Source: Owenia fusiformis (lineage: Eukaryota; Annelida; Polychaeta; Sabellida; Oweniidae). From it: a DNA stretch of 64,000 nt. Below, one piece after another: positions 17,801 to 50,700 of the stretch. Every line of letters begins with the position of its first letter. Positions within the stretch are counted from its first letter, which is position 1. A program made the position numbers and the translations under genes. Under the pieces are notes generated by a model. That model saw only the letters and a program-made list of their open reading frames with translations, was not told the origin of the DNA and did not search any database. Location of the stretch: contig CAIIXF020000007.1 in NCBI GenBank assembly GCA_903813345.2, forward strand, positions 17,280,714 through 17,344,713. Reading direction: 5' to 3'.

Positions 17801-20800
17801 TGAAAAGGTCATTGAAGGTCAAATCTTAAATATAAAGTCAGATTTGAACTTATGAAAACATGTACATGATTTTGAAAACAATTGAAGTCAGTCTACACAC
17901 TATTTGTTGAATTATTGGAAGTTGTAAGAATTTGTTACAGACGCCAACTGCTGATCGCCAACCACCAACCACCATAAAAAACGGGGACCATAACAAATTA
18001 CAATATGTCACCACTTTTTGGTGGTGACATAATAAAATGGCATATAGGGTATCTATTTTTGGTCTGAAACCGAAGATGGGAAAAGAAATGGTAATGTCTT
18101 GTTGATGAGATATTGAACGTTTTCATTTAAAATAGAAGTTGTCCCATTTTTGCAGCCTAGTCAACAGGAAAATGGTGGAAATCGGAGAAAAAGAAGGGGG
18201 GGGGGTGCGGCCCATAACCCATAATAAAATAATATAATATGATAATAATAATAAAACCATGAGAAAGAGTGAGAAAAGAGCTTTAAAATGCTTTTTATTT
18301 GAAGTTTCTAACTCAATTTTGAAGGAAGTTACATCGATTTTTGTAAAATTCAAAAGAAATCTTAATCATTTGGCTTGTTTATGCCACGATCGCACCCCCC
18401 TGACTGAAAACTGAAATTCTTTTGGTGATTGCAGCCCCCTGACTGAAAGATGGCTACGCCCCTGCTATAAAAGAGAATAAATATCATGCGAGGTAGACGG
18501 TTCTATGAACTAGGACTGCGTGTAAAGATCAATGAAGGTGAGTTTATTATGTTTACATCAATAAAAATAACATGGCTGGGCAATTTTAAAGGCAAATTCA
18601 AAACAACAAAGAGTGTCTTATTTATATTCTATTGTCACACTCAGTGGACATAGAATATGGTAACATATATGATGTACACATATGGCATACCTTTATAAAG
18701 CTTCTCATACTCCTCTTCATTTTGACTGTGATCCCGTGGAGAACTCTCCTCAACCGTAGATGGACCCTCAAGCGGTTCCACAGTATAGGAAGGTGGCTGA
18801 GGGGTTAAAGTATCACCATATTTAGGAGGATTTGCTGTCTGGGGGGTGAGGCTGAATGGTTTTCTAGGAGTCTGGGGGGTAAATGGGGAGTAGGAAGTGT
18901 CCGTATTATACCCAGAGGTATCTGTAGTACGAGAAGAATCTCTCCGTAGCTTTCTAGAATTCCAGCTAAGTGGGGACAATGAAACTGGAGTTTCTTGTGC
19001 GATGATCAAACTTTGAGATTTTACTTGATAAATATTGGGAGCAGACGTTCTTCGTTTTTGTGCAGGGACAGAGCATAAAGGTGGCAATGATGCCTCTGGT
19101 GATGAGGCTTGCTTCCTTAGAGGGTTGCGATGTAATGCTGGTGTTTTAGGAGTTAATCCATGAAGTTTATCTTTGCATTCACAACCAGCTGCACACTCCT
19201 CTTCATGGCATGCTTTCACTTGTGTTGGCGAGTTGGGAATATTCACTTTAAGTTGTTTAGGATTTCTTGCTTTCATTGTCTCATTTGAAGAGTTAGCAAA
19301 GCCTGGAGAGTTGGGCGAGACTGGGGATATTAGTGTATGTGAACTACTGTCACTACTGAAGTGTTTAGGAGTGACTGGAGATGGAATGTTACCTAAAACC
19401 TCCCTGAATTGCTCAGGTGAATGGCCCAAAAGGTCCAGATCATTATCAATGTTTCTCTCTCCTTGATGTGGGTGTTTTACTGGGGGATTATATTCGTCAG
19501 TTGGTGGACCCCTTGGAGACAGAGCTTCCTCAAAAGTTGGGAAATTTCTCTCAGCTGTGTCAGATTGTTTTCTTATGTCTTGTTTGGGGGAACCATGGCT
19601 TGCAGAATCATGCTCAGTTGTGCCTGGTGGTTTAGCAATGTCTTGTTCAGGGTCAGGGGAGCTGAAGCTTGCATAATCCTGTTTAGTTGTATCTGGTGGT
19701 TTAGCAATGGTTTGTTCGGGGGAACTGAAGCTTGCCGAGTCCTGCTCAGGCAAACTATTCACAGTACGTGGAATAAGATCGCTCCAGTTGTTATCCATTT
19801 CCAACAGGTTTGTTGTGTTGTTGCCTTTTGAACCAGATGTATAGATATCCATGAAGCTATTAAGTTGAAATTCTTCATCTATTTGAACCATTGTTTGTTT
19901 CACAGAAGGAGTTGTCCCAGGATGCTCCTCTCTCATTGTTATGATTGTACTCGGCATCTCACCAATTATATCATCACTCAGCTCTGATTTGATATTCCCA
20001 TTATTATCATCAGTGCGATTGTCTAGATGTTCAACACTAAAATACTCGCTGGTCTGTGTTAAAGGAGGCTTGTTGTCTACATTCTCTGAACTGTAGTCCT
20101 CAGGCTCACTGGCTTCTAAGCTCTTGAAGAAACCCTCATCTAAAGAACAAATATTTATGGTCACTGCTTTTTTGTGTAAGTTTTCAAAACTTATTTACCA
20201 TAGTGAAAAGAATGAATTACCAATTACTAACATTCTCAAAGAAATCTAGTACTTGAAAATATTTTTATGAAAAAATATATAAATCAATAGAAATGTTTAG
20301 GCTTTCTTGACTAAAATGTAGTGTCCTGTAGTGTGATAACAGCATTGACAAATGAGAACAATTTTCCAACAGGGTGAAAACAGCATTGGCAAATATGAAC
20401 AACATTTCAACTGGGTGAAAACTGCATTACCCAAAGAAAACAATTTTCAGCTGGGTGAAAACAGCAATGGTAAATGCAATAAATATTCTAAATCAACTGG
20501 ATGAGCACTGCATTAACAAAAGGGATCTATTTTCCAACTGGATGAAAGCAACATTGGGAAATAAGAACAATGTGGGTGAAAACAGCATTGGCAAATGGGA
20601 ACAATTTTCTAACTGGATGAAAGCAACATTGTTTCACTTCTAGAAAGACCATGGTCCTGAGGAATTCCAACTTACCAAGTAGCTTAAAAACATTATGTTT
20701 TAACAGACAGGCTGCATCCGGCCGTACATCAGGATCTTTTGTCCACCCAGAGTGGAAGATGTCCTGTATAGCAGAGGGAAGACTGCTTGGAATATCTGCA

Positions 20801-23800
20801 TAAGGGGATTCTGTAGCTATCTGCAACAGAAATACTGTACATTTAATTTACTGTAATTGTATCGTAAAGCTATGGTAATTTAAATATGAACATGTGAAAA
20901 ATACCTTAATCAATGATACACCTTTCTTTTCAGGCATTGTTTCCTAAAATTAACACTCGATGCAAAGCATCTCTTGCAAATTTTGGAAAAAACACCTTCA
21001 AAAATGGCCATTCCACATTGTACTGAGTCAAAGGCTTAAATCCTTAACTCAATCATATTTGGGGAGTTTATTGTCAAAAGTACACATTATCTTATTCTCA
21101 CAGTACTATGTTATACTAGACTAAGTACAAAGTTTTCAACTAAATGGCCATTCCACATTGTACTGAGTCAAAGGCTTAAATCCTTAACTCAATCATATTT
21201 GGGGAGTTTATTGTCAAAAGTACACATTATCTTATTCTCATAGTACTATGTTATACTAGACTAAGTACAAAGTTTTCAACTAAATGGCCATTCCACATTG
21301 TACTGAGTCAAAGGCTTAAATCCTTAACTCAATCATATTTGGGCAATTTATTGTCAAAAGTGCACATTATCTTATTCTCATAGTACTATGTTCTTCTATG
21401 TACTAAGTTTTCAACTCACTTTATAATGTAGAAAAGCAGCATTTCCATATCTCCTGACCCATGGATGATCTCCCGTTAACATATGAAGCAAGACACATGT
21501 GGCTGCCCATACATCCACTTTGTGGTTGTATGGATGGCTCAACGCCTTTTCTGGAGACCAGTGAGTCTGCGTGCCTGTTGGTCTCTTTACACGGATTGTC
21601 GGAGAACTGTCAGAAATTAATTTTGCTAATCCAAAGTCAATGACAACTACAGCATCAACCTTGTTTTGTTCCCCAGGCAACACCATAAGGTTGGCAGCTA
21701 CAAATGGGGCATACATGAGTATTATCCTTCAGGTAGATTGGTTCATTTTGATTCCATTATGACCTAACAGACAGTCAATCAATTCAGTTTAATTTTGAAT
21801 ACTGTCTGTATCAGACTTGTCTTTTGATATAATATGTGCATTGAAATCAGACCTGATGAACAATTCCAAAAGAGCTCATTACAATCTAACATACCTTTGA
21901 AATCATTGTGTATGACCTGCTTCTTCTGGAAATGTTCCAAGTGGGATAGGCACTGTTTATAGATGTATAATGCTTCTTTTTGTGGTAAGCTGCCTGTGGG
22001 TTTCTGCTGGATGTACTGGGCCAGTGACATACCTATATGATATAAAAGACATCTCTTAATATATTTGAATTTTGAAATTATCAATTTAAGATAGTTATAC
22101 AGGGATTAAAGATAACATCCTGCTAAAATATAGACACAATGATGATGTTGCCCTTTGCTATTATAATTAACAAAACAATATTAAACAAGGCATGACAAAA
22201 TGTCACCACGTACCTAGCTGCTCACAATATTATGAGTTTAATCTTAAGTCAGGTTTGAATTTCTGAGAACTTGTAGATGATTTTGAAAAAATAAATTGGT
22301 CAATTTGAAGCAAGTTGAAAAAATACTTTTTTACCCTGAGATGGTCATCGAAGGCGTAATCTGGAATCTAAAGTCAGATGTGAACTCCTTAGAACTTGTA
22401 CATGATTTTGAAAAAAATGGTCAATTTAAAGCAAAATGAAAAAAACACCTTTTTGAGCTTGAGAAGGTCATTGAAGGTCACATCTCTATTGAATTTGAGA
22501 ACGCCATTGAAGGTCAAATTTATAGCCAGATGTGAAATTCCAAGAACTTGACGATGATTTTGAAAAAAAATTGGTCAATTTAAAGCAAGTTGAAAATACC
22601 TTTTGACCTTTTTTGACCTTGAGAAGGTCGTTGGAGGTGAAATCTCAAATCTTAAGTTAGATTTGAACTTCTGGTAACTTGTAGATGATTTTGGAGAAAA
22701 AAAAATTGGTCAATTTGAAGCAAGAGACAAGATGTTGCCAAAATTGTAGAAAGATTGAGTTAATAGTATTCAAATGGCAAAATCTTTGATCTTAAAGGTA
22801 GTTGCTCTAGCATCTTGCTTGCCCGATTGATATGATTATTTTAGTTAATTTTACGAACTCAATCTACTGTACGACTGTTTTATAATGGATAAATATCAAT
22901 TTGACCATGAACTAATTAAATTCTAACCAGGAGGAATCTGACCTACAGGCCTTACTTTTTATACATATTTTTTTCTGTTTTGAAAAATTTGATATGTGAT
23001 GTATATTTCTTAGTTTTTCAAAGAAATCTACAAATATTTCATTACGGTTTTATCTTTACATCGTAATTTCGACCACTGCCTTCACTTTTTGAACGAGTTA
23101 CCTTGAAATATCAAGACGTCATTCTATTCTTATACTTATAGAACTCAATGTAACTGTCCTTGACCATTATCAAGCAGTAAAAAATTAATTTGCTTCATGG
23201 GTGACAAAATGTTTCTTCTTCATGGGTGTCGAGTTTCGCATCATACAAATGTAATTTTAGGCGATCTGTCTGCATGGGGTGTAAATACAATTACAATATA
23301 TTTTCCATCGACTCGGATTTCATACGTGATCAAGACGAGTTTCTTAATTGATTAGAATGATTATTGCCGAATCTGTTCGGTGATGAGATGGTTGAGCAAC
23401 TACCTTTAATCCTGCATCACACTGCATGAATGATTATGTAATAAACATTTTGAAAAAGAATAAATACATTTTGGTCTCCAGATCTACTTTCAGTTCAATA
23501 TATCATAGTATCATATCTTACCTTCAAGGAACTCTTGCAAAAGATAGACATATTCTCCTTTTCTGAGAGCACCATAAAGGAAGGCAACCTCCCCTGTGTG
23601 TACAGTTCCCATCAACCGTAACCATGCTTGGATCTCCATAGGGTCAAAGTTCAGTAAATGCACCTACAATTATAAGATAAAAGCTAAATTTGATTCATTA
23701 TCTTCTAAAATAAATGCTTATAAATTGATCATCAGTTATTGTTTTTCATCTAAAATTTATTTTAAGAGGATTGCCCAGTCCTTATCGATGGGCTCTCCTC

Positions 23801-26800
23801 ATTTATTTAATTAGGTTTGATGGATAAAATATCTTGTAAATTGTGTATATGTATGCACTGTCAGTATACATCAATTCTCTTGATAAGTTCTTAAATGATG
23901 ATATACCTTCTTAACACAGAATAATACGTAAGTAGTTTCATCCATAGCAAGGCTACACTTCCCTTCTACACCATTTCCCAGGAACTGTATTTTTCTCCAC
24001 TGATTCTTTTTCTTATAATTTCCTTTTTTAATTTTCAAATACTGAAATATTCAAAATACACATATATGATCAATGAGAAAAACATATCTTATCATAATTA
24101 GAGGTTGAAATCCATGCTTTTTTGTCTTGAATGAATCATTGTTCTGATCTCTTTTTACAGTTTTATCGCAGATATGGCATGAATAAGATCTAAGGAATTT
24201 CATTTGAAGAATCATGATAGAAGATTTCCAATTTTGATGGATGTGAAATGTAACAGTGGCTATGAAATATAAAAATGGGTGTTAAATACAACAATGGGTC
24301 TTAAATACAACAACATTGTTAGTTTGAGTACCTGTTTCATATCATTTAAGATGACACCTTCTTCATGTATGTAATCCAGCAAAGTTCTCTTTGCCAGAAC
24401 ATCGTTTCTCAGTCTATCCCAATATCTTGCCAACTCTTCCAAATGACCATGGCTACCATAGGTGACCTCAGCCTGCCCTGCCATCCTGGGATGTAAGGAT
24501 ACAAACTGCTTACTGTTATTCCCACACTGAGTTCCATATCTTGCCATGTCAAGGGGCACACTTGTTGTACCTTTGAACAGCATCTCTGGTAAAATACTCT
24601 CACATCTCTCATCATCTTCATAATCATCAATTGGAACTACAGGTGTGATTGCTGCTTCAGAGGAGGGTGCCACCTTGATAATTTGATCATCAGAAAATGA
24701 TGACTTTACACCTATATCTTGGAAAAAGGACTTAATCGCATCCATGTTGGGAGTTGGAGCCTCAGCCTCTAATGAGGGATGTCCATCATCAATTCCAAGT
24801 CTAGAAGAAGACTCATTAGCAGATAGGTTCAGTGAAGAGAGTTGGTCATCAAGGTCTTCATTCTCCAGGTCTGTGGATAATGCCTCTAGCATCTCCTCTG
24901 GTGTTCCTGTGGTAAGCACATTCTCTTTAGGTGCTTCATCATGCAGTGCCATAGGTGTTATACTCTCTTCAGTGTCAATAGGTTCACCATCATCAATGTG
25001 TTTTACCTGCTCCGATAGATACCTCACTTCAGTTAGGGGATGTGCTTGGGAGCTAAAGGCAGGGGTTTCAGGGGAAGGGAGGATGATGCCCCTTTGTCCA
25101 GATATGTCATGATCAAACATGAGAGCAGATGGTCTATAATTAGAACTGGCAATCTTAAGAGGCTTAGCTTGAGCTAAACCATAGTGACTCTCAAAACCAC
25201 CAGGTTCCTCGTGATCTTTAACAAGATCATCCTGATGGGCTGATTCATTTTCTTTGCTTGCATCTTTATATTCAGGGATAATGTCTCTAGACTTTGGAGG
25301 TAATGATGGAGTCCTGTTTGATATGCCAAGAGCCATCTTGGGAGGACTAATCAGACGGCTACTGAGGTGTCCACGGAGACTTGAACTTGTCTGGGATCCA
25401 AATCCTCCACTTTGAAACAAACTTCCTGAGTTGTTCGAGTAAAATGAGTTGTCAAGAAACATTTTTCCGAGGAATCGCTTCAGTTTCTTCCTTAACCAGA
25501 TCCCCTCAAGTGTCTTCAAACGATCTGGTTTAATCTTAACCTCAGGTCTCAATTTTTTACATATCTTATTCTCACAATGTTTCCCAGCCTCACATTCACT
25601 GACGTGCATCTTAATAGCAGAAATGACAACTTTACACTTCCTACAGGTGGTGCATTCTGGGAAGTGTTTAAAGATGGCCACCAGCTCATGACAAAGGTTA
25701 CAGTTTGTTATAGATGCCATGCCTCTCTGTGTGGGCCAACAGTCAGATTGCATACAGGTCAACAACTCTTGCAAGGTAGACTGGAACTCACTTTCCTCGA
25801 CCTGGAATAATATGAGAGAAGATATCATTTTTAATCATTCATTTTTATTAGGTTTGTACATTAACAGATAATTAATTGCACAAAATACTGGACGACAGGG
25901 CTAATCTCATCTGTAATTTTTCCATTTTCTATAATTTTCACACTATTAAGTTATCATTATCATCAATAATTGCTGAAAGTATGACATAAATCACTGGTGA
26001 TTATCAGGAGTTCAAGACCATGTCTTTCAAAATGGCAAACTGCATATCTCCAATTCTCTTTTTATACTAACCTGTGATGAATAGGAAAGGTTGGAGTGTC
26101 AGGTATATGGATCTGATACATTTAAGCAACCTGCACTTGCTATTAACATTTACTGTAATTCAGTAATCCTCTTTGTAAATAAATTGTGTTTGGTTTCAAG
26201 TGTTATTACAACTGTTTTCCCCTGTCTATGTACATGTAGTATTCTTAGTGCATTCATCCAAGGTTTTAACACATTGCTATAGAAAGGGGAAATATTCAGA
26301 TAACAGCAAGCTACTAATCACAAAAGTTAAGTACATAAATCAACAATATTCTCCTAATTGCAAGGTTAAAGTTGTTTTTAGATTTATCATGTTTAGATCT
26401 CTAACTGTCAAGACAAACAGGCAATTTCCATCTCCCTTTATATGAATGAATCTCCTTTCCTGTTTCAATTCCATATTCATTTTCTGAATATTTCATTTTG
26501 AATGATAATATATGTATCTCTCTATTAAATGATAAAATCTGGACCAATACTGATGAATTCATTATACAATGTCATACATTGACTTTTATCATGATATGTG
26601 TATGCCATATCCAAATTGTCATGGTTCAGGGGTAAATGATCACATATTTACATCAATGACAAGAACAAATGATCTGTAATTGACTTCATATCTAATATTG
26701 ATAACTTAGAAATTATTATGATTCACAGATATCATTGAATGCTAAATAACTCATAGAATAAAAAAATGATCAAAAATATCCAGGACTTTTACATCTCTCA

Positions 26801-29800
26801 GATCCATGTCTTATACTTTATTCAACCCCTAAAAAATCATCAACTGATTTCTTAAGTCCCGTAGTGTGTTATGAAGTAAATGTGTAAAGTAAACTACTAT
26901 GCCTTCATTGTCCCTCTGGACAATGTCTTTAGAGCAAGTGAGAATGATGCTATTAATTTCTATCAGAATAGTAAACTGTGGTTGAAAAAATACAGAATAT
27001 CAGATCATTTTAGTCGATTAATGAGTTGATATCAAATATCAACACAAGGCAATAACATGACAAAATGTCACCACCTAGTTGCTCACAAAATTATTAGTTC
27101 ACCTTTAAGTCAGATTTGAATTTCTTGGAACTTGTAGATGTTTCTGAAAAAAATGCTCAATTTGAAGCAAGTTGAAAAAAGAGCTTTTGTGACCCTGAGA
27201 AGGTCATTGAAGGTGAAATCTCAAATCTAAAGTCAGATTTGAACTTCTGAAAACTTGTAAATGATTTTGAAAAAAAATGGTCAATTTGAAGCAAGTTGAA
27301 AAAGACCTTTTAACCTTGAGAAGGTCATTGAAGGTCAAATATTTTTTTGACCTTGAGAATGTCATTAAAGGTCAAATATATGTGAACAGTTCAGCAGTAA
27401 ATCTTGAATCTAATATACACCTACCTTTTCCAAAGCTTCAGCAAAACTCTTCAAACGACCATGTTTTTTCCTGTATCCTTTGAAGTCCATCTCTGGGGCT
27501 TCACCACCTAACATGTTGCCAAGCTGTGCAATATCAGCATTGGAATCTGTCACTGGTCCCTAGAATGAGATCCACTATATATGTTCTTTTATTTATCAAT
27601 GTACATGAACTACATGTATATTTCACTAAAAAAAGTTACAATACTACAGTATTTCAAAGGTTTTTCCCTATACTACCTGAGTGGGAAGAAAGAATATATG
27701 AGGGGTGATCAATTAAAAAAACATCCATTACCTATGAATTACTCTTGTAATTTAACTACAATAGTATCAGATTTATCTTATTATGGACCAAATTTTTAAT
27801 TTAATTAATTTCTAATTCTCAAATTACAAAAATAAATCTCTAACTGAAAGAAACCTTCAAAAGGTTTGAACAGTAACTTTCCTATAGTGCCCTATTAAGT
27901 ACCAATAAAAATAAAAATACATTTAATTGTTAGGGCCTAACTGGGCTCCCTGTACACTTTATGAGTTAATGTTTAACATTTATTGCAATATTCAGTATAC
28001 TACAGTATGAGGCATCTTCTCCGAAGTAAACTCATGACAAAATATGTTCATCGTCACATGTGGGAGGATATGTCAAGCAAGCCACGCACACAAGTCTAGG
28101 TTATATTTACATATAATTGAGTTCAAAAATCAAGTTCTGACTACTATTTAACAGAAAGTAGGCCAGTTGTATTTGCCAAAAGATATTTCCTGATTCCCTA
28201 GAAAATGATCAAAGATTTGAATTATATTTGCAATACAGAATTTTCAAAATGTCACAATCTTTTCATATATTAGAGGGTTTGGGGAATTTTCATACATGTA
28301 CTGTGACACTACACTGAACTAGGGCATTACATGGAAAGAAATGACCTTCATACTCCAGTAAAAACACGAAAAATAAATGAAAAAATTGCAATACTTATTA
28401 AACCTAGTGCAACAAATGCATATTGATGAGTTTAAAGACATATCAAAAATCTAGAAAAATCTAAGTAGTGGAAGACATGTAAAAATCACTATTTGTACCC
28501 CCTGGTCTTATTTTATGAGGGGATACTGTGATAAGCATTTATATCTTCTGTTGTGTGCCTCCAATTACATTCAAATTTTCAGGGATTATGCATCCATATA
28601 TACTTAGTTGTCATGAAAAGATTGATCTTGATTGGTCAATTGGTTACCATGGCAACATAATTTAATTGCAAAATATTGTAAATATTAAGGATAAATCTAC
28701 CGTTTCCCTACAAACAGATCGTAGTTTGTCATTTTTAATTTTTCAAAATGAACACAAAGTTGAGCGTAATACATATTGAAGGAGTTTACAACAAGATAAC
28801 ATGATATATAGGTTAATAGGATGACATATTTGGTTCATGTTTGATAACTACACTGTACTGCTCAATTTTCCACAAAGTGGGCGTGGCACTTTTTGTTATT
28901 ACAATTCCAAATAATTTCATATTTTCAAGGGTCATTAATACATATATAATTATCTGGAATGGTGAGTCCAAATATCTTTTGTCAATTGGTTGCCATAGTA
29001 ACACAACATATTGTATGTGAATCGTGGGTAGAGGTCATTTCAGGCAATCCTTGTTAATCTTAATTGTTTATTACATTCATCCTTAAGAACTGTTTTAGTG
29101 TATGATCTTTTTTAACAAATACAGGTTTGGATAATATTAATATGCGTTTGCTATGGTAACACAACTAATAATGCTGTTTCTTGAAATACTGCTCTGTTTG
29201 TTCGTCTGCCCGCCCATCTGTCTAAGCATTTTCTGACCTATTAATTAATCACAGATTGGTGTTATATGTGACAAAATGGTGATTCTTGACATCTTAGACT
29301 CAAGAGGATGTACCAACTTAGACCCTGTACGCTGTATCAGTCTTAGATTATGGATATTCTACCCATTGTAGACTTTGGAGGATGTACCCATTAAACACAA
29401 GAGTCTACAACCTCTAAGACTCTAGAGGCTGTACCATCTTATATCTATTTATTAATCACATATTAATGTTACATGTGGCTAAATTGTGATTCTTGACATC
29501 TTAGACTCTAGAAGATTTATCAACTTAGACTATATACATGTAGGCTATATCGATCCTAGATTATGGATGCTGTACCCATTGTAGACTCTGGATGATGTAC
29601 CCATTAAACACTAGAAGCTCTGGAGGCTATACCCATTGTAGACTCTTGGAGGCTGTACCCATTGTTAACTCTGCATCTGGAAGGTGTACCATCTTCTCTC
29701 GAAGGCTGTTCCCAGAACTCATCAAAGGTTCTGGAGGCTATACCATTTTTGACTCCGGAGGCTATATCCATTTAAGACTCTAGAGGCGATATCATCCTAG

Positions 29801-41800: not shown

Positions 41801-44027
41801 CCCGCTTGGTACTTGGTTAAATTGATCCCTATACGTGAAAATACGTGATTGATCAAATTTATAATTTTGCTAATTCCGGAAATCTAACATTTCGTTCAGC
41901 GCAATCGAGCCTCCTTCCTACCGATCATTTTCTTATTTCGGTATTTCATATAATTTTTAAAGCCCTGTGATTCAGATTCAATGATAAACTTGAAAACATT
42001 GATCGATCCCTCGATTTGTTTATCTCGTGTGCTAGGGGGCGTATCAAAAATGCAATAAAACGACATAACATTGAACAATAATTTATTAATTTCATACTCC
42101 CTTCTAAGGATTTTAGTGATCGTATATTAATCTAAATTACCGCATAAAATCTTTCCTTGAATGTTCACACGCTAGATTTACGAACCTTTAGTTTCCTTCG
42201 CAAGTTCGCAAAATTCCTTCGCTAAGTTAGCAAGTTTCCTTGAGCCGTCCCCTTCATCAGCATGCGCAGATGTAATGCGCAGTAGGTTTATCAATGGTGC
42301 TCACAGTGACCGATCTATCGTAAGTTTTCACCAAGTATTTTCAATTAACTCCCTCAAGTTAAGATCTTCGATTCACTAGATCTGAAGCTGATCCTATGAA
42401 GATAGATAATGGGCACATGAAAATCCAGTCGATCGCACATTAAGGGGGTAATGATGATAAATTAGGTATGAAAACAAATCTACTTTCGGTTTCATTTTAT
42501 AATTACAAGATTCTACCGTATTCAATTTAAATGATGCCCAGTATTGTGGTCGGACTTATATTGCCGTTTTAGACTTTGGAATGATTGCAAAAATGTTGAA
42601 TTTCAACATGAAACGCTTTGACCCCAATTTGTGTAACTCCACACAGGGAGAAACTCCTCTCCCACTCCATTCACACCCATGACTCGCTGGACCAGATAAT
42701 CAGATGATTAATAGTGACATTTTTCTTGCAATTGCCTAATTAATTAATTGTTAGTTGTTAATGTGCTATAAGAGTACAATAAAAGGTATGCACAAAATCA
42801 AAAAATAGATTTTGTATGTGGTTTCTACATTTTGTATGCATTTTTACTCAAGAAAAACACTTTTATAGCTTTGACTCAACTTTTTTTCTTGTGACTCACT
42901 TTTTTGAAACTACTTGAGTCATGATGACTCACAAAAATATATGCCTACCGCCACCGCTGATAGGTAAATAATTTCTAGTCAATGAACTGTTGCAATTGCC
43001 ATTTAGAGAAAATATTTGGGTGAACCAACTACCAAGTTAATGAGGCTGAAATAACATTGAAGGATGTAACATCCTAAAACTGTTGTTAATATGTCATGGT
43101 ATTTTCAACTTTTTTATTTGTATCCATCAAAGCACTACTAAGAATTTTTAAGCATAAAATAGCTAGTTGATGACGATGTACATATATACATACCCTGTTG
43201 CTATTATTGCTTGATTTATCGCTGTTGTTGCTGCAGCAGCCTTGTTGCGGGTTTCCAGAGGCCCCATTGTGGGAACATGTGCGCTGTTTGACACATGTCT
43301 TAGCCAGGCTCCTGTAGGTAGGAGACATAGGTAAAGATTCAGCTTGCTTCAATGGTGTCTCCTCATAGGGTGTCTCCTTATGTGGTGCCTCCTTATATGG
43401 TACTTCCTTATATGGTAATTCTTTATATGATGATTCCTTACATGGCACCTCATTAAGTGGTGTCTCCTTTATACAGGTTGCCTCTTTATTGGGTGTCTCT
43501 TTAACAGGCACCTCCTTAATTGGTGCATTTTTACATGTTGCCTCCTCACATGTCGCTTCAGAACTTCTGTCTATATGAATCTGATCACATTGGATATTGA
43601 GTGTGTGGTATTTTGCACTGTTTGTCATTCTATGCATATTTACACATTTCAAATAATTATACAGTTGTCCAAACAACGAAAACATTACTTGTTGCGACTT
43701 TCCATCAAGTTTCTGGAATAATTTTTGCATCTGCATTTTGGAATTGTTAAAATCTGTAAACATTTCAGACCCAAGCTCCTTTTTTAATTGACACTCTTCA
43801 TTTTCTGAGGTTACAATAAGGTTTTCAAGTCCATATTCAGGAGGACTCGAAGTGAGAAGTTCTGATTTTATATAAGCTTTTACATCTTGCGAGGCCATGT
43901 AACAAAGAATATGCCGATCTTTGATCGTCTCTTCACCTGATATTATATTTCCTCCTTCAGAGCGATAGTTCATGTCAAACAACTCAAGTTGTTTGTTCAT
44001 TAATTTAGTAATTTGTATGTCATCCAT
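11649..44027 (-). CDS. MAP3K14: MAP3K14/NIK-like kinase with TAZ-type zinc finger, 14 exons, about 1,845 aa
   Basis: Exons on the minus strand, in transcript order: 44027-43194, 32704-32594, 27559-27425, 25801-24332, 24041-23907, 23663-23522, 22032-21895, 21697-21420, 20820-20676, 20139-18691, 16864-16758, 13556-13466, about 12626-12334, 11858-11649. All introns are GT-AG and phases match throughout. Order of parts: novel N-terminus with a Lys-Glu-Pro repeat (1-278), charged linker (279-360), TAZ-like finger (about 376-441), acidic/Ser-rich linker, kinase (about 868-1129), Ser/Pro-rich tail (1130-1678), and a C-terminal beta-rich domain. Kinase landmarks match NIK: the VKKV double lysine, FLEG.SL, GTQTHWSPE (NIK GTETHMAPE), and KIA.E.P after the donor of exon 8. 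NIK acts in the cytosol and phosphorylates IKK-alpha in the non-canonical NF-kB pathway. This protein is about twice the length of human NIK. The splice start of exon 13 is the least certain junction. Confidence 0.85.
12334..12626 (-). CDS. MAP3K14: NIK-like gene exon 13: start of C-terminal domain
   Basis: The donor TGT|GTAAGT at 12333 is clear. The 5' end is uncertain: an AG before 12626 gives 97 codons beginning GSYSMYSLYVNSFSVAD, and an AG before 12563 gives a shorter exon in the same frame. I prefer the longer one because LYVNSFSVADNTMKEHLKYF parallels NIK VKVQIQSLNGEHLHIREF, the start of the NIK C-terminal region. The rest (PLGKVLIPLEDSNLFLFAGFE) is beta-strand-like. Confidence 0.65.
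12671..13299. mobile_element. 629-bp Tc1/mariner-like element in NIK-like intron 12
   Basis: Ends CAGGGTGTCAAAAAACAACG and its reverse complement are perfect inverted repeats, flanked by TA on both sides. Longer imperfect inverted repeats lie inside ('tgttacatggcgtgtcatat' against 'atatgacacactatgtaaca'). A short remnant on the plus strand near 12905 (PDLIYPEYICSIVKDRVGEL) looks like the end of a DDE transposase. Not autonomous. Confidence 0.75.
13466..13556 (-). CDS. MAP3K14: NIK-like gene exon 12, linker, 30 aa
   Basis: Acceptor TTGCAG and donor CTAG|GTATGG. Encodes AKIDEDFAKESDLDTQPPPG through NRQL in phase 0 to phase 1. It is preceded and followed by intron sequence carrying mobile elements, and it fits between exons 11 and 13 by phase. 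Confidence 0.65.
13635..14698. mobile_element. 1.06-kb repeat element with 9-bp target-site duplication
   Basis: It is flanked by AGTTAATAA at 13626-13634 and 14699-14707. It starts CCAGAACAACGGCAACGCC and ends with a GGAC microsatellite and 'ttcgatgggataataactaga'. About 135-147-bp subrepeats (starting near 13729, 13862, 14009, 14152) each contain 'aaaatggcggccattttt'. Truncated or rearranged relatives lie at 38521-39620 and 40998-41510. No ORF. The class is not recognised. Confidence 0.65.
15455..15596. repeat. Long hairpin
   Basis: 'gacctctccagaggtttact' and 'gtcaaaattatatcccgag' on the left are inverted on the right ('ctcgagggatataattttgac' is nearly complementary). The stem is over 45 bp. 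It borders a possible Crypton-like fragment. Confidence 0.6.
15640..15884 (-). pseudogene. Possible Crypton/KCTD1-like recombinase N-terminal fragment
   Basis: The minus-strand reading frame begins MTSLSNDKMVAASTSRFKNV, then EDEDIISLLESKDSQNTKKN and LKLCTKLLVDFAQESN. This arrangement (short Ser-rich leader, RFK, Glu/Asp-rich helix, 'SKNTKK') is what I associate with the N-terminus of Crypton tyrosine-recombinase elements and the related DUF3504/ZMYM group. No catalytic domain is present, and it lies in a NIK-like intron next to a hairpin. Family assignment is tentative. Confidence 0.35.
16195..16660. repeat. Dispersed intronic repeat 'gaccttgagaaggtcattgaagg', copy A
   Basis: Made of imperfect roughly 110-bp subrepeats ('cagatttgaacttctgagaa', 'gattttgaaaaa.ggtcaa', 'gaaggtcattgaagg') and ending 'gtggtgacataata'. 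Relatives lie at 17470-18035, 22195-22740 and 27055-27400, all in introns of the NIK-like gene. Confidence 0.65.
16758..16864 (-). CDS. MAP3K14: NIK-like gene exon 11, acidic linker, 35 aa
   Basis: Acceptor TTTTAG and donor TTTT|GTAAGT. The split codon with exon 10 gives Glu. It encodes ENIIRDLSNKDPSEEGFEERL and on to NASSRSDF, an acidic helical linker ending in phase 0. Confidence 0.7.
17470..18035. repeat. Dispersed intronic repeat, copy B
   Basis: Same family as 16195-16660, with about four subrepeats and the same 'gtcaccactttttggtggtgac' palindromic end near 18007. Confidence 0.65.
18691..20139 (-). CDS. MAP3K14: NIK-like gene exon 10: Ser/Pro-rich tail with IIAQ motif
   Basis: A 1,449-bp exon (about residues 1130-1613), low in complexity and rich in Ser, Pro, Thr and Asp/Glu, with many SP/TP sites (SPVTPK, LTPKTP, FTPQTP). 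A local repeat of the type FSSPEQ.IAKPP.TT lies near its start. SLIIAQET at 1506-1513 (nt about 18992-19012) resembles ISIIAQA, the TRAF3-binding site of human NIK, which is N-terminal in that protein. A cysteine cluster CHEEECAAGCEC (about 1440-1455) could bind metal; I do not recognise it. The reverse strand shows only shadow ORFs. The exon would carry regulatory docking and phosphorylation sites, by inference. Confidence 0.8.
20330..20635. repeat. About 50-bp minisatellite beside the exon 9 donor
   Basis: Six or so imperfect units of 'ggtgaaaacagcattggcaa' plus 'atgagaacaattttccaact', ending about 40 bp from exon 9 of the NIK-like gene. Confidence 0.7.
20676..20820 (-). CDS. MAP3K14: NIK-like gene exon 9: end of kinase C-lobe
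   Basis: Encodes IATESPYADIPSSLPSA through FKLL, matching the NIK segment KIASEPPPVREIPPSCAP in position and pattern. It includes the conserved Arg of the C-lobe (DPDVRPDA). Exon 145 bp; ends in phase 1. A roughly 50-bp minisatellite lies just downstream in the intron. Confidence 0.85.
21004..21415. repeat. 140-bp tandem repeat, three copies, abutting the exon 8 donor
   Basis: Units start at 21004, 21144 and 21284 ('atggccattccacattgtac') and are nearly identical. The last unit ends at the donor of exon 8. The unit's 5' part also occurs singly near 61675-61740 (inverted) and, more diverged, near 60750-60890. Confidence 0.85.
21420..21697 (-). CDS. MAP3K14: NIK-like gene exon 8: DFG motif, activation segment, C-lobe
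   Basis: Encodes AANLMVLPGEQNK through AAFLHYK. Landmarks are VIDFGLAK (Asp1009), GTQTHWSPE (the Ala of APE is Ser1036), KVDVWAATCVLLHMLTGDHPW (NIK [21 protein letters not shown] is the closest family match I recall). The donor is AAA|GTGAGTTG, and a 140-bp tandem repeat begins a few bases into the intron. Confidence 0.9.
21895..22032 (-). CDS. MAP3K14: NIK-like gene exon 7: kinase alpha-D to catalytic loop
   Basis: Encodes GMSLAQYIQQKPTGS through VIHNDFK. The catalytic loop is H984-N-D986-F-K988-A-A-N991 once joined to exon 8. The usual HRD is HND, but the catalytic Asp, Lys and Asn are present, so the kinase should be active. Confidence 0.85.
22195..22740. repeat. Dispersed intronic repeat, copy C
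   Basis: Same family as 16195-16660. It begins with 'catgacaaaatgtcaccacg' and has four or five subrepeats. Confidence 0.65.
23522..23663 (-). CDS. MAP3K14: NIK-like gene exon 6: kinase alpha-C to hinge
   Basis: Encodes VHLLNFDPMEIQAW through LLQEFLEG. It aligns by eye with the NIK segment from the catalytic lysine to the hinge: NIK FRAEELMACAGL versus FDPMEIQAWLRL, LYGAVREGPW versus LYGALRKGEY, and FMELLEGGSL versus LQEFLEGMSL across the next junction. Exon 142 bp; ends in phase 1. Confidence 0.85.
23907..24041 (-). CDS. MAP3K14: NIK-like gene exon 5: kinase N-lobe (glycine loop and catalytic lysine)
   Basis: This exon encodes 45 residues (851-895) in phase 0. It contains an atypical glycine loop LGNGVEGKCSLA (872-883) and the beta-3 lysines FCVKK (Lys894-Lys895). 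NIK has the same paired lysines followed by Val, and here too the next exon begins with Val. Confidence 0.8.
24332..25801 (-). CDS. MAP3K14: NIK-like gene exon 4: TAZ-type zinc finger and acidic linker, 490 aa
   Basis: A single 1,470-bp exon, phase 0 at both ends. Residues 376-441 have the spacing of a TAZ finger as in CBP/p300: Cys376, Cys381, Cys394 and Cys397; then His406-x3-Cys410-x2-Cys413-x2-Cys416; then His426-x3-Cys430-x5-Cys436-x4-Cys441. The stretch CNLCHELVAIFKHFPEC parallels the CBP TAZ2 segment C-x2-C-x9-H-x3-C, and CENKIC parallels CQENKC. TAZ modules bind transactivation peptides, so a protein-docking role is inferred here. A basic stretch (RLKTLEGIWLRKKLKRFLG) follows, then about 350 residues of Ser/Glu-rich linker with acidic patches such as DLENEDLDDQLSSLNLS. 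The end (RLRNDVLAKRTLLDYIHEEG) leads into the kinase. Confidence 0.8.
25808..27054. other. NIK-like intron 3, no other gene seen
   Basis: AT-rich intron between exons 3 and 4. Only short ORFs without domains, and no clear repeat until the dispersed repeat at 27055. Confidence 0.5.
27055..27400. repeat. Dispersed intronic repeat, copy D
   Basis: Same family as 16195-16660, beginning 'catgacaaaatgtcaccacc'. It ends about 25 bp from exon 3. Confidence 0.65.
27425..27559 (-). CDS. MAP3K14: NIK-like gene exon 3, 45 aa
   Basis: The 135-bp exon is in phase 0 at both ends, with acceptor ATTCTAG and donor AAG|GTAGGT. It encodes GPVTDSNADIAQLGNMLGG and then a basic helical stretch (DFKGYRKKHGRLKSFAEALEK). 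It leads directly into the TAZ-like finger of exon 4. Confidence 0.65.
28345..31845. repeat. 3.5-kb foldback structure with a minisatellite core
   Basis: The left arm, about 28345-29175, is inverted at about 31125-31845. Paired landmarks: 'atcaaaaatctagaaaaatc' against 'gatttttctagatttttgat'; 'gtaccccctggtcttatttt' against 'cccctcataaaattatccca'; 'ttggttaccatggcaacata' against 'tgttgctatggtaaccaatt'; 'gggcgtggcactttt' against 'aaaagtgccacgcc'. The core is the minisatellite at 29290-31080. It lies in NIK-like intron 2. Confidence 0.75.
29290..31080. repeat. Degenerate minisatellite, motif 'ggaggctgtaccatcttaga'
   Basis: About 1.8 kb of units of roughly 20-40 bp built from 'gactctggaggctgtaccat', with many substitutions and length changes. 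Short ORFs across it are repeat translations. Confidence 0.8.
32594..32704 (-). CDS. MAP3K14: NIK-like gene exon 2: charged linker, 37 aa
   Basis: This 111-bp exon is in phase 0 at both ends (acceptor TTCTAG, donor GAG|GTACTG). It encodes a very charged peptide beginning RSRDEDNDRKEEQDESNRH and ending MHPINLE. Support comes only from the splice sites, the open frame and fitting phase between exons 1 and 3. Low complexity makes it the weakest internal exon. Confidence 0.5.
32744..34950. repeat. 49-bp minisatellite array, split by an insertion
   Basis: Over 30 units of about 49 bp ('gtacattagttcctgtgcat', 'gtgaacaactctatagacat', 'tagacatat'). A 559-bp hAT-like element interrupts it at 33631-34189. 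A second block of the same repeat lies at 40050-40500. It starts about 40 bp upstream of NIK-like exon 2, within intron 1. Confidence 0.9.
33631..34189. mobile_element. 559-bp non-autonomous hAT-like element, 8-bp TSD
   Basis: Perfect 13-bp ends TAGAGCTGGCATC and GATGCCAGCTCTA. It is flanked by TGTGTATG at 33623-33630 and 34190-34197. The 8-bp duplication and the TAGAG ends fit the hAT superfamily. Removing it restores an intact 49-bp minisatellite unit. No transposase. Confidence 0.85.
35042..35750. mobile_element. 709-bp insertion, absent from the local duplicate
   Basis: The local duplicate at 40588-40592 reads straight across ('cttaacacatcaaaatatg'), so this block is an insertion in one copy or a deletion in the other. 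It contains a long hairpin at 35046-35215 ('atagtgactgcc' inverted as 'ggcagtcactat') and the palindromic 'gctgacgtcaca' near 35635. Superfamily not recognised. Confidence 0.6.
35980..37460. mobile_element. 1.48-kb foldback transposable element, 5-bp TSD TACAA
   Basis: Ends CACGCCTTACCATCGCG and reverse complement CACGCCTAACCATCGCG, with inverted repeats running through CACCGTACAG motifs. The full arms are about 450 bp (35980-36435 and 37005-37460) around a loop of about 570 bp. TACAA flanks both sides (35975-35979, 37461-37465), and the empty site with one TACAA is at 40805-40809. No transposase ORF. Confidence 0.85.
38521..39620. repeat. Rearranged copy of the 13635-14698 element
   Basis: Starts 'ccagaacaacggcaacgcc' and holds the same 'aaaatggcggccatttt' subrepeats and GGAC tract. 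Its tail differs after 'ggacagacga'. Confidence 0.75.
40040..41684. repeat. Mosaic local duplicate of the 34.9-39.8 kb region
   Basis: In order: 40050-40590 matches the minisatellite and its flank to 35041; 40591-40809 matches 35751-35979; 40810-40997 matches 37466-37653; 40998-41165 matches about 38860-39024; 41166-41684 matches about 39285-39800. The first two gaps coincide with insertions in the long copy; the others are deletions. Confidence 0.85.
41685..42959. mobile_element. 1.27-kb element with CAGMGGTGGCG ends, TSD ATAGG
   Basis: Left end CAGAGGTGGCG and right end reverse complement CAGCGGTGGCG, flanked by ATAGG at 41680-41684 and 42960-42964. The interior has no recognisable transposase. 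It sits exactly at the edge of the local duplicate. Confidence 0.65.
43194..44027 (-). CDS. MAP3K14: NIK-like gene exon 1: unknown N-terminal region with Lys-Glu-Pro repeat
   Basis: The exon starts at ATG (MDDIQITKLM), encodes 278 residues and ends in phase 0 at the donor AACAGG|GTATGT. Residues 1-150 are mixed-charge and predicted mostly helical by eye; I recognise no domain. Residues about 165-228 are an imperfect short repeat of the type K-E-x-P-x (KEVPVKETP, YKELPYKEVPYKEAP) with interspersed cysteines. The end is rich in Cys, Asn and Ser (GCCSNNSDKSSNNSN). Human NIK has a different N-terminus, so homology of this part is not established. An in-frame TTG lies three codons upstream of the ATG; I prefer the ATG. 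Confidence 0.7.
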
Positions 44028-47778: not shown

Positions 47779-50700
47779 ATGGAAACTTCTAGCTCTCACG
47801 TGCAAGTGAAATTCTTCACAAAACAAGATCAGTAAGTACTGCTAGAACCTTTTGACATTTTCTACAGTTGCCTGAAAGTAATGCCTGTCTTTTAAGATTT
47901 TATTTTTCAACCTTTTATGTCTTTCATAAGATCTATACTCTAAAAAGTATGCTGTTCGACAATCAAAAAATCCTTTTCTGAAAAAGTTCATGTATTCCTT
48001 CGTAAATCATTTAGCCTACTTACATTCGATGAATCACGGAGTTTTATGGCCATGTGTTTTTATCCATTCCATAGCTAGGAACAGAAATACTCGAAAATCG
48101 ATACGAACTTCGAAGGACAGGTCAGTCATTTTCTGCAGAAAAATTCTCATTGCCCTGTGTTTGACTTCAGAAAAATGACATTTATCTTGACTTCGTTCAG
48201 TACAACGACCAATTAAAGAACCAAATAGTATAAATTTATCAATCACGGGAACTGTAGGGATCACATAACAAATCACGTATCTGTAAAAAAATATTTATGC
48301 CGGCCTGCTGAAAGATGGCAGCGTTTGATATATACATACCTTGTTCCCTACGTTTCGACGAGTCCATTTGTCGATGACATCATTTTCTTAGAAATGCAAG
48401 GGAGAAATGAGTTGCGTGATATGAGAGGGGATTTCTATTCAATTTCCTGTGATTAAGGTAACTTATAACTTAATCAAAAAATCCAAGATGGCCGAAACCA
48501 GGAAGCACATGGCATTTGAGTATAATCTGACCATCAAAATTAACTGTCTTTTGGTTGGATTTTCTCTCAATCTTTTAGTTCCACTTATCATTTATATAAC
48601 CAGGCTCACTGTGGTAATGCAAATAGAAACAATAAACATTTTGGAATGGGAATTTGAGTCCTCTGAAAATGTGACAGAAAAATTGACAAAAAGAGTAGCA
48701 CGACTTGTTTCTGAATTTGAGAAGTGTACTTTTTTCCTTATTTTGATCCCAATTTTTTTATCGGGTAATTTTTCAAATTTCCGTTGCTCCTTCGTTTTTG
48801 ATATATGTTTGAAGTATATTTTCTGAAATGTTCAGATATTTTGAATCAGCGGTTTTTCACGGGCTACACCTAGAAAAAAATCTTCTCAAATTCTTTAAAC
48901 GGCATTTTTTTTCTCAAACTAAAGTTTTTTGTTGTTCTTTGATGTCTTTGTAATGATTACAGTGCACAAGCATATGTGAAATAATAAAAACGACTTCTCA
49001 GGAAGAGTTTGAAAATTTCAAGATTGTGAAATTTTCAATTTTTTCTGAAAATCGATTAAGTTAACAGTCACCTTAAGGTGCTATGGAAGTTAACAGGAAA
49101 TGACAAAACAGGAAGTGACAATTTTTTTTGCATTTTTAGATATTTTTTGAATAAAGATAACAGAGTTCTGGTTTGACCTCCAGTCAATTTAACTATTTCC
49201 ACATATCATTTACATGACCAGGATCACAATGTGCATGGTCAGAATGACCCTAAACATGACGAAATAACCTTTTTAGCCCTTTGAAAGTGTGACTGAAAAA
49301 AAGCTAAAAGTAGGAGCGTAGGGATAGTCACTGAACAGAATCTTTTGAATTTTTCAGAAAATGTGCCCAATATAATGCTCTAACTAGTACAATCTTTGAA
49401 ATTTTAGAAAATTGTCTTAAACAAAAATGGCGTCATAAAAAAGAAAATAGATCGCTTTTCAAATCAGTTTTTTCATTTTTTTTCTTTTTCTATGAATGAT
49501 ATCAAATTTTCAAAGATTGTATCATTTAAAGCAATATATTGGGCACATTTTCTGAAAAATTCAAAAGATTCTGTTCAGTGACCTTCCCTACGCTCCTACT
49601 TTTAGCTTTTTTTCAGTCACACTTTCAAAGGGCTAAAAAGGTTATTTCATCATGTTTAGAGTCATTCTGACCATGCACATTGTGATCCTGGTCATGTAAA
49701 TGATATGTGGAAATAGTTAAATTGACTGGAAGTCAAACCAGAACTCTGTTATCTTTATTCAAAAAATATCTAAAAATACAAAAAAATTGTCACTTCCTGT
49801 TTTGTCATTTCCTGTTAACTTCCATAGCACCTTAACTGACAAAAGGAAGGTGGCGCTAGTTAAGGTAACTTATAACTTAATCAAAAAATCCAAGATGGCC
49901 GAAACCAGGAAGCACATGGCATTTGAGTATAATCTGACCATCAAAATTAACTGTCTTTTGGTTGGATTTTCTCTCAATTTTTTAGTTCCACTTATCATTT
50001 ATATAACCAGGCTCACTGTGGTAATGCAAATAGAAACAGTAAACATTTTGGAATGGGAATTTGAGTCCTCTGAAAATGTGACAGAAAAATTGACAAAAAG
50101 AGTAGCACGGCAAAGGTCCCTGAACATTTTTTTTTCTAATTTCTCTGAAACATCCCTTTAATATAGCCCAAAATGGAAGGAGCTTTAGAATTTTGAAATC
50201 TCTCATACAAATTAAAAAAAAATAGAAAAAAACAATTTGAGAAGTGTACTTTTTCCTTATTTTGATCCCAATTTTTTTATCGGGTAATTTTCAAATTTCC
50301 GTTGCTCCTTCGTTTTTGATATATGTTTGAAGTATATTTTCTGAAATGTTCAGATATTTTGAATCAGCGATTTTTCACTGGCTACTCCTAGAAAAATATC
50401 TTCTCAAATTCTTTAAACGGCATTTTTTTTCTCAAACTAAAGTTTTTTGTTGTTCTTTGATGTCTTTGTAATGATTACAGTGCACAAGCATATGTGAAAT
50501 AATAAAAACGGCTTCTCAGGAAGAGTTTGAAAATTTCAAGATTGTGAAATTTTCAATTTTTTCTGAAAATCGATTAAGTTAACAGTCACCTTAAGGTGCT
50601 ATGGAAGTTAACAGGAAATGACAAAACAGGAAGTGACAATTTTTTTTGCATTTTTAGATATTTTTTGAATAAAGATAACAGAGTTCTGGTTTGACCTCCA

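What the first reader, a model, noticed from the sequence alone, without database searches (positions are those of the whole stretch)
24332..25801. TAZ-type zinc finger fused to a NIK-like kinase
Residues 376-441 show two consecutive clusters, His-x3-Cys-x2-Cys-x2-Cys and His-x3-Cys-x5-Cys-x4-Cys, preceded by a Cys quartet. That is the three-cluster layout of a CBP/p300 TAZ domain. The same open protein, by splice phase, continues into a kinase that matches NIK. Vertebrate NIK has no such module. TAZ domains bind acidic transactivation peptides, so an invertebrate NIK could dock directly on transcription factors or other acidic partners. This is inference.
Basis: partly seen in the sequence, partly recalled or inferred. 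Interest (0 to 1): 0.85.

Follow-up and report, generated by a model that had tools for sequence, protein, structure and literature searches.

The report
NIK-like kinase with TAZ-like zinc domain
An invertebrate version of the immune kinase NIK carries, on the same large exon that leads into its kinase, a compact cysteine-rich domain whose metal-binding layout resembles the TAZ fold of the co-activators CBP and p300, although true kinship to TAZ is not proven.

Summary
The sequence observation holds. Window 25801-24332 (-) is a 490-codon open exon with GT/AG borders. Residues 16-81 hold 10 of its 12 cysteines plus two suitably placed His, spaced C4C12C2C8H3C2C2C9H3C5C4C. The next five exons, joined in phase, give a complete kinase whose 11 best PDB matches are all NIK. 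The NIK assignment and same-protein reading are well supported, without a transcript. The TAZ assignment is only partly supported. The ligand spacing is as close to TAZ1 as TAZ2 is, and chance rarely gives it. But Pfam zf-TAZ does not match at E<=10, while this genome's CBP TAZ segments do. Cluster 1 is CCCC, not HCCC. Similarity beyond the ligands is weak, and the one good local match pairs our cluster 3 with cluster 2 of TAZ1, out of register. Low-confidence AlphaFold models show a TAZ-like helix order but no significant fold match. Docking on acidic activation peptides is untested; charge evidence is mixed. I call it a TAZ-like, probably helix-stapled zinc domain in a NIK-like kinase, not a TAZ family member.

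The parts
24332..25801 (-). Large coding exon (490 codons, phase 0 to 0): zinc domain, basic helix, acidic linker, pre-kinase segment
   Evidence: Open frame, splice sites; P of 490 open codons about 2e-16
25559..25756 (-). TAZ-like three-cluster zinc domain, exon residues 16-81
   Evidence: Ligand pattern C4C12C2C8H3C2C2C9H3C5C4C
25691..25756 (-). Cluster 1: C-x4-C-x12-C-x2-C (CCCC instead of the TAZ HCCC)
25634..25666 (-). Cluster 2: H-x3-C-x2-C-x2-C
25559..25606 (-). Cluster 3: H-x3-C-x5-C-x4-C; locally resembles cluster 2 (not 3) of human TAZ1, sharing H-x3-C-x-AGK-x-C-x4-C
25463..25558 (-). Basic stretch directly after the fingers, exon residues 82-113, net +10; helix predicted at 92-114 (low confidence)
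24482..25264 (-). Acidic, Cys-poor linker, exon residues 180-440, net -33
23907..24041 (-). Kinase exon: pre-kinase residues, glycine loop LGNGVEG, ATP lysine in CVKK
23522..23663 (-). Kinase exon: N lobe and hinge
21895..22032 (-). Kinase exon ending in catalytic loop HNDFK
21420..21697 (-). Kinase exon: AANL, DFG, activation segment, SPE
20676..20820 (-). Kinase exon: end of C lobe
27425..27559 (-). Likely upstream exon (45 codons, phase 0 to 0)
   Evidence: Reading frame and splice sites
43194..44027 (-). Candidate first coding exon (ATG-led, 278 codons, donor in phase 0); its link to this gene rests on strand and frame alone
18641..20194 (-). Open frame of 517 codons, likely carries the C-terminal tail; boundaries not determined; no Pfam match at E<=10

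Best explanation
This is the invertebrate NIK (MAP3K14-like) gene. Its N-terminal half holds a compact zinc-bound domain of three four-ligand clusters, each near the junction of two helices, which is the TAZ way of building a fold. The domain most likely acts as a docking module placed before the kinase. Its helices and the basic helix that follows would bind a short acidic or hydrophobic peptide. The peptide could be in trans (a Rel, IKK or TRAF partner) or in cis (the acidic linker of net -33 between it and the kinase), so that binding and release would set the activity or stability of the kinase. Shown: the open frame, the ligand pattern, the NIK-type kinase, the exon phases, the charge layout. 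Inferred: zinc binding, the helix-stapled fold, the docking role, and the cis or trans choice.
For: NIK: the top 11 PDB sequences are NIK. A query that includes the 3' end of the finger exon aligns to NIK chains from 'EEGVILND' onward, against 'NEGVLLTE' (11 of 15 hits, best E 0.0036). The six exons joined are in phase with GT/AG borders. Layout: 7 of 11 ligand spacings equal TAZ1 or TAZ2 at the same place (4 of 11 TAZ1, 6 of 11 TAZ2). Permuting the query's own spacings reaches 7 in 0.28% of cases, and together with the two His places in 0.0045%. Its summed difference to TAZ1 (12) is below the TAZ1-TAZ2 difference (15). The TAZ pairing uses all 10 Cys of the stretch and two of its four His. 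Helices predicted at 3-20, 29-45, 54-71 and 79-87 put the clusters near helix junctions; the 86-residue model keeps 3-19, 34-46 and 54-71. TAZ2 helices 2+3, anchored on the ligands, score p 0.046. Charge layout.
Against: No Pfam match at E<=10. hhalign probability is 1.1 to 8.2%, against 90% for TAZ2 versus TAZ1. With all C and H kept, 94 of 1000 shuffles score as well against a three-sequence TAZ HMM and 49 of 150 against TAZ2. The one local match that beats such shuffles (TAZ1, 2 of 150 reach it) pairs our cluster 3 with TAZ1 cluster 2, out of register. Ligand-anchored similarity is not significant for the TAZ2 blocks (p 0.19) or the TAZ1 N-terminal blocks (p 0.25), and helix 1 is worse than random against TAZ2 (p 0.97). 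Against TAZ1 alone, 4 of 11 equal spacings is not significant (p 0.08). Cluster 1 is CCCC with x4. Models have mean pLDDT 49 and 60 and no significant Foldseek match. psi-x-x-psi-psi motifs are not enriched in the acidic linker (3 observed, 4.2 expected). In one search two SLK matches also start at query residues 34 and 41, so the pre-kinase tie is not exclusive to NIK. No transcript and no other species could be examined.
Confidence: 0.48

Rival explanations
1. An unrelated zinc domain that converged on TAZ-like spacing, for example two tandem C2HC fingers (C34-x2-C37-x8-H46-x3-C50 and C53-x2-C56-x9-H66-x3-C70) flanked by four more Cys, used for dimerisation or partner binding.
For: No profile or significant fold match to TAZ. 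Non-ligand similarity is mostly at noise level, and the best local TAZ1 match is out of register. The same residues can be paired as two C2HC units.
Against: Pairing as two C2HC units leaves C16, C21, C76 and C81 over, whereas the TAZ pairing uses all ten Cys. Spacers of 8-9 residues look short for usual C2HC or TRAF-type fingers (recalled spacers 11-12, not tested). Spacing and His placement agree with TAZ beyond the permutation null.
Confidence: 0.37
2. One reading: a true TAZ domain inherited by shuffling from a CBP/p300-like source, which docks the kinase on acidic transactivation domains such as that of Rel proteins. (It overlaps with the best explanation, so the odds do not add up to one.)
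For: Layout. CBP TAZ1 binds the RelA activation domain through hydrophobic grooves (PMC3760798, sections 8 and 10 read). The genome has CBP-like TAZ hits at two loci and Rel-domain hits at two loci. Residues 16-113 carry net +12.
Against: Fails the Pfam model; core net charge is +2 against +12 (own TAZ2 core) and +7 (human TAZ1 core); cluster 1 differs; the TAZ1 local match is out of register. No test of binding.
Confidence: 0.17
3. Gene-model artefact: the finger exon and the kinase exons belong to different transcripts.
For: No RNA evidence; the upstream exon chain could not be completed; the pre-kinase segment alone does not find NIK.
Against: The finger and the segment that aligns just before the NIK kinase lie on one uninterrupted 490-codon frame, and its donor is in phase with the first kinase exon.
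Confidence: 0.05

Closest known systems
Vertebrate NIK (MAP3K14), PDB 4g3g, 4dn5 and others
   Same: Kinase domain, best match in PDB; the segment just before the kinase aligns weakly
   Different: The long N-terminal zinc module and acidic linker; human NIK has no such Cys cluster as I recall it (not tested)
CBP/p300 TAZ1 and TAZ2 (PF02135)
   Same: Twelve ligands in three clusters, 8- and 9-residue inter-cluster spacers, H-x3-C at clusters 2 and 3, helix order in low-confidence models
   Different: No profile match, cluster 1 CCCC, cluster 2 loops of 2 and 2 residues, little similarity beyond ligands, near-neutral core
MAP3K8 (Tpl2/Cot)
   Same: Second-closest kinase in PDB
   Different: Lower score than the NIK chains (101.7 against 115.9-119.8 bits)

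Membership tests
NIK (MAP3K14) | Kinase domain nearer to NIK than to other kinases | tested here: met
   The 11 best PDB sequences are NIK; MAP3K8 next. No tree was built and only solved kinases were compared.
NIK (MAP3K14) | Catalytic residues: ATP lysine, catalytic-loop Asp, DFG | tested here: met
   CVKK, HNDFKAANL, DFG located; Pfam Pkinase 3.1e-37
NIK (MAP3K14) | NIK-type segment just before the kinase | tested here: inconclusive
   Aligned from 'EEGVILND' in a longer query (best E 0.0036; 11 of 15 hits NIK, but two SLK matches start at residues 34 and 41); the 60-residue segment alone finds no NIK
NIK (MAP3K14) | N-terminal TRAF3-binding motif and C-terminal IKK/TRAF2-binding tail | not tested
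   Recalled features; N-terminal exons are not fully resolved
TAZ zinc finger (PF02135) | Score above the curated Pfam cut-off (25 bits) | tested here: not met
   0 families at E<=10; a genome scan with PF02135 lists 6 places from 5 scored candidates, none in this window
TAZ zinc finger (PF02135) | Three zinc sites, each of three Cys and one His | tested here: not met
   By sequence clusters 2 and 3 fit, cluster 1 is CCCC; definition from PMC3760798 section 8
TAZ zinc finger (PF02135) | Order and spacing of the 12 ligands | tested here: met
   7 of 11 spacings equal TAZ1 or TAZ2 (4 TAZ1, 6 TAZ2); permutation 0.0028, with His placement 0.000045; TAZ was chosen for comparison after the resemblance was noticed, and the last TAZ1 cluster is from recall
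TAZ zinc finger (PF02135) | Four-helix zinc-stapled fold | tested here: inconclusive
   Helix order fits, but mean pLDDT 49 and 60 and no significant match
TAZ zinc finger (PF02135) | Binding of transactivation peptides | not testable with these tools
   Needs protein biochemistry

The most novel reading that the evidence does not exclude
A zinc-stapled, highly diverged TAZ domain was captured by, or is ancestral to, invertebrate NIK. It directly couples NIK signalling to TAZ-binding activation peptides such as those of Rel proteins, or is clamped in cis by the acidic linker, giving a mode of NIK control that vertebrates lack.
Probability: 0.23. Interest if true: 0.75.

Novelty: new variant of a known kind. 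Interest (0 to 1): 0.5.

Why it matters
How NIK is regulated outside vertebrates is little described in what I could search; one in silico study of Aplysia could not identify a NIK orthologue by domain annotation (PMC9334734, passage seen). A structured docking module in front of the kinase would offer a regulatory input other than the TRAF3 route known in vertebrates (recalled). If it is a TAZ domain, it would add a signalling kinase to a domain known to me mainly from CBP/p300 and plant BTB-TAZ proteins (recalled). A TAZ domain is also reported in a shrimp-virus protein that blocks NF-kB signalling (PMC12187017, passages seen), so a TAZ-type contact with this pathway has a possible parallel.

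Tried and rejected
Structure route: two single-sequence AlphaFold jobs (140 and 86 residues), both low confidence. Foldseek gave no match at E<=0.001 for either. One p300 TAZ2 chain (6fgs) appears at rank 39 of 49 with E 8.8 for the 140-residue model, which I do not count. Absence of TAZ from the VIA-align lists is no evidence either way.

Regular expression: 0 of 200,000 shuffles of the first 100 residues match a relaxed TAZ-like pattern that I wrote around this sequence, but the same pattern misses the genome's real TAZ2, so I do not use it.

Homologue route: the finger found no relative in viral contigs or prokaryote genomes (24 stretches matched a pattern, none confirmed), as expected for an animal gene, and only itself in the own genome. 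Outside this gene the next kinase match in the own genome is at E 7.4e-11. No eukaryote collection is offered, so conservation could not be tested.

Considered and rejected: RING and MYND spacings (compared by eye with recalled consensus patterns; no Pfam hit at E<=10); psi-x-x-psi-psi enrichment in the acidic linker (not enriched); a 37-codon second exon (none among the 12 candidates that passed my filter of phase 0-0 exons of 45-399 nt; a stricter filter gave none).

Literature: ten searches, most with capped lists. None of the titles or abstract openings listed describes a TAZ or TAZ-like domain in NIK. Beyond listings I saw PMC3760798 (outline, sections 8 and 10), PMC9334734 (passages) and PMC12187017 (passages).

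Change on checking: a draft took the TAZ1 local match as in-register support at cluster 3; one search shows that it pairs our cluster 3 with TAZ1 cluster 2.

Full report
Observation. The exon at 25801-24332 on the minus strand is a single open frame of 490 codons with a TTCCAG acceptor and a GTACTC donor. At window composition 490 open codons have a probability near 2e-16. Exon residues 16-81 (window 25756-25559) read C-x4-C-x12-C-x2-C, eight residues, H-x3-C-x2-C-x2-C, nine residues, H-x3-C-x5-C-x4-C. Ten of the 12 Cys of the exon lie there; 0 of 20,000 shuffles of the exon put ten Cys in 66 residues. Its absolute numbering assumes 360 upstream residues; I account for 323 (278 from 44027-43194 and 45 from 27559-27425) and found no 37-codon exon to fill the gap.

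The kinase. Five exons downstream (24041-23907, 23663-23522, 22032-21895, 21697-21420, 20820-20676) join in phase to give a kinase with Pfam Pkinase 3.1e-37. Against PDB sequences (2235 matched at E<=0.001, 60 listed) the 11 best are all NIK (E 1.6e-33 to 2.5e-32), then MAP3K8 (5.3e-28), then 1.5e-17 or weaker. A query reaching back into the finger exon aligns to NIK chains from 'EEGVILND' against 'NEGVLLTE' (11 of 15 hits are NIK, best E 0.0036); two SLK matches begin at residues 34 and 41 of the same query, and the 60-residue pre-kinase segment alone does not find NIK, so this tie is modest. Catalytic residues are present. In the whole assembly the next kinase match outside this gene is at 7.4e-11, so no second NIK was seen. 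Because the fingers sit on the same uninterrupted frame as the segment leading into the kinase, and that exon's donor is in phase with the first kinase exon, fusion by gene-model error is unlikely; but no transcript was seen.

Is it TAZ? For: TAZ1 spacings are H3C12C4C8H3C5C4C8H3C4C2C (third cluster recalled) and TAZ2 H3C4C4C8H3C7C2C9H3C4C4C; the query is C4C12C2C8H3C2C2C9H3C5C4C. Seven of 11 equal TAZ1 or TAZ2 at the same place. Random orders of the same spacings do that in 0.28% of cases, and with both His in place in 0.0045%. Taken singly, 6 of 11 equal TAZ2 (p 0.0018) and 4 of 11 equal TAZ1 (p 0.08). The summed difference is 12 to TAZ1 and 17 to TAZ2, against 15 between TAZ1 and TAZ2. TAZ was chosen as the comparison after the resemblance had been noticed, so these figures flatter the case.

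Against: Pfam finds no family at E<=10 in the exon or in its first 100 and 90 residues, while CBP TAZ segments of the same genome match at 7.4e-11 (partial TAZ1) and 1.5e-13 (TAZ2). A genome scan with PF02135 lists six places at E<=10, five at two loci that look like CBP copies and one weak place elsewhere, none in this window. A TAZ HMM built from three sequences gives 4.6 bits, reached by 94 of 1000 C/H-keeping shuffles and 7 of 1000 full shuffles. hhalign to a five-sequence TAZ alignment gives probability 1.8%; to TAZ2 1.1%, in register, its score reached by 49 of 150 C/H-keeping shuffles; to TAZ1 8.2%, its score reached by 2 of 150. That TAZ1 match, however, pairs our cluster 3 with TAZ1 cluster 2 over 19 residues (shared H-x3-C-x-AGK-x-C-x4-C), out of register with the three-cluster layout. 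TAZ2 against TAZ1 gives 90%. Ligand-anchored scores outside C and H: TAZ2 blocks together p 0.19, own partial TAZ1 blocks together p 0.25, TAZ2 helices 2+3 p 0.046, TAZ2 helix 1 p 0.97, the other four 0.17 to 0.46 (eight tests, uncorrected). Cluster 1 has no His, whereas each TAZ1 zinc is bound by three Cys and one His (PMC3760798 section 8).

Structure. Single-sequence AlphaFold models reach mean pLDDT 49.3 (140 residues) and 59.6 (86 residues). Foldseek gives no match at E<=0.001 for either. The fold is undecided.

Function. TAZ1 binds RelA through hydrophobic grooves (PMC3760798, section 10). The query core carries net +2 (residues 16-81) against +12 for the own TAZ2 core and +7 for the human TAZ1 core, which weakens acidic-peptide docking. 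The following 32 residues carry +10, giving +12 for residues 16-113, which restores part of it. An acidic linker (residues 180-440, net -33) lies between this basic unit and the kinase; psi-x-x-psi-psi motifs are not enriched in it (3 against 4.2 expected). I therefore favour a docking or clamp module, with partner unknown. The genome has Rel-domain hits at two loci, so a Rel partner exists in principle. A shrimp-virus protein described as having a TAZ domain blocks NF-kB signalling (PMC12187017, passages); it is a parallel only.

Verdict. It is a new variant of a known kind (NIK) with a TAZ-like zinc module. Ten literature searches listed nothing on such an architecture; absence there proves little.

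Noticed in passing
window 48425-52772: The same roughly 95-codon frame ('[27 protein letters not shown]...', with small changes) appears four times about 1.3 to 1.4 kb apart (in frames 48425-48826, 49721-50161, 51179-51466, 52485-52772), so a repeat array with long units seems present; TRF, limited to periods of 500, lists only 15-base units there.
   Followed up: partly
window 59045-59308 (+): A WD40-repeat exon (Pfam WD40 5.1e-6, just over its cut-off), with a further possible coding frame from 60283 on the same strand; probably a neighbouring WD-repeat gene.
   Followed up: partly
G000 C2:15.77-15.79 Mb and C3:3.298 Mb: TAZ profile matches at two separate loci, suggesting two CBP/p300-like genes in this animal.
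   Followed up: partly
window 54361-54663 (-): Frame whose translation looks like the end of a LINE-type reverse transcriptase (resemblance recalled; Pfam gave no match at E<=0.1).
   Followed up: partly
window 43194-44027 (-): Candidate first exon with a run of near-repeats of the type KE-x-P-x-KE; its only Pfam match at E<=1 is Extensin_1 at 15.4 bits, far below its cut-off.
   Followed up: partly
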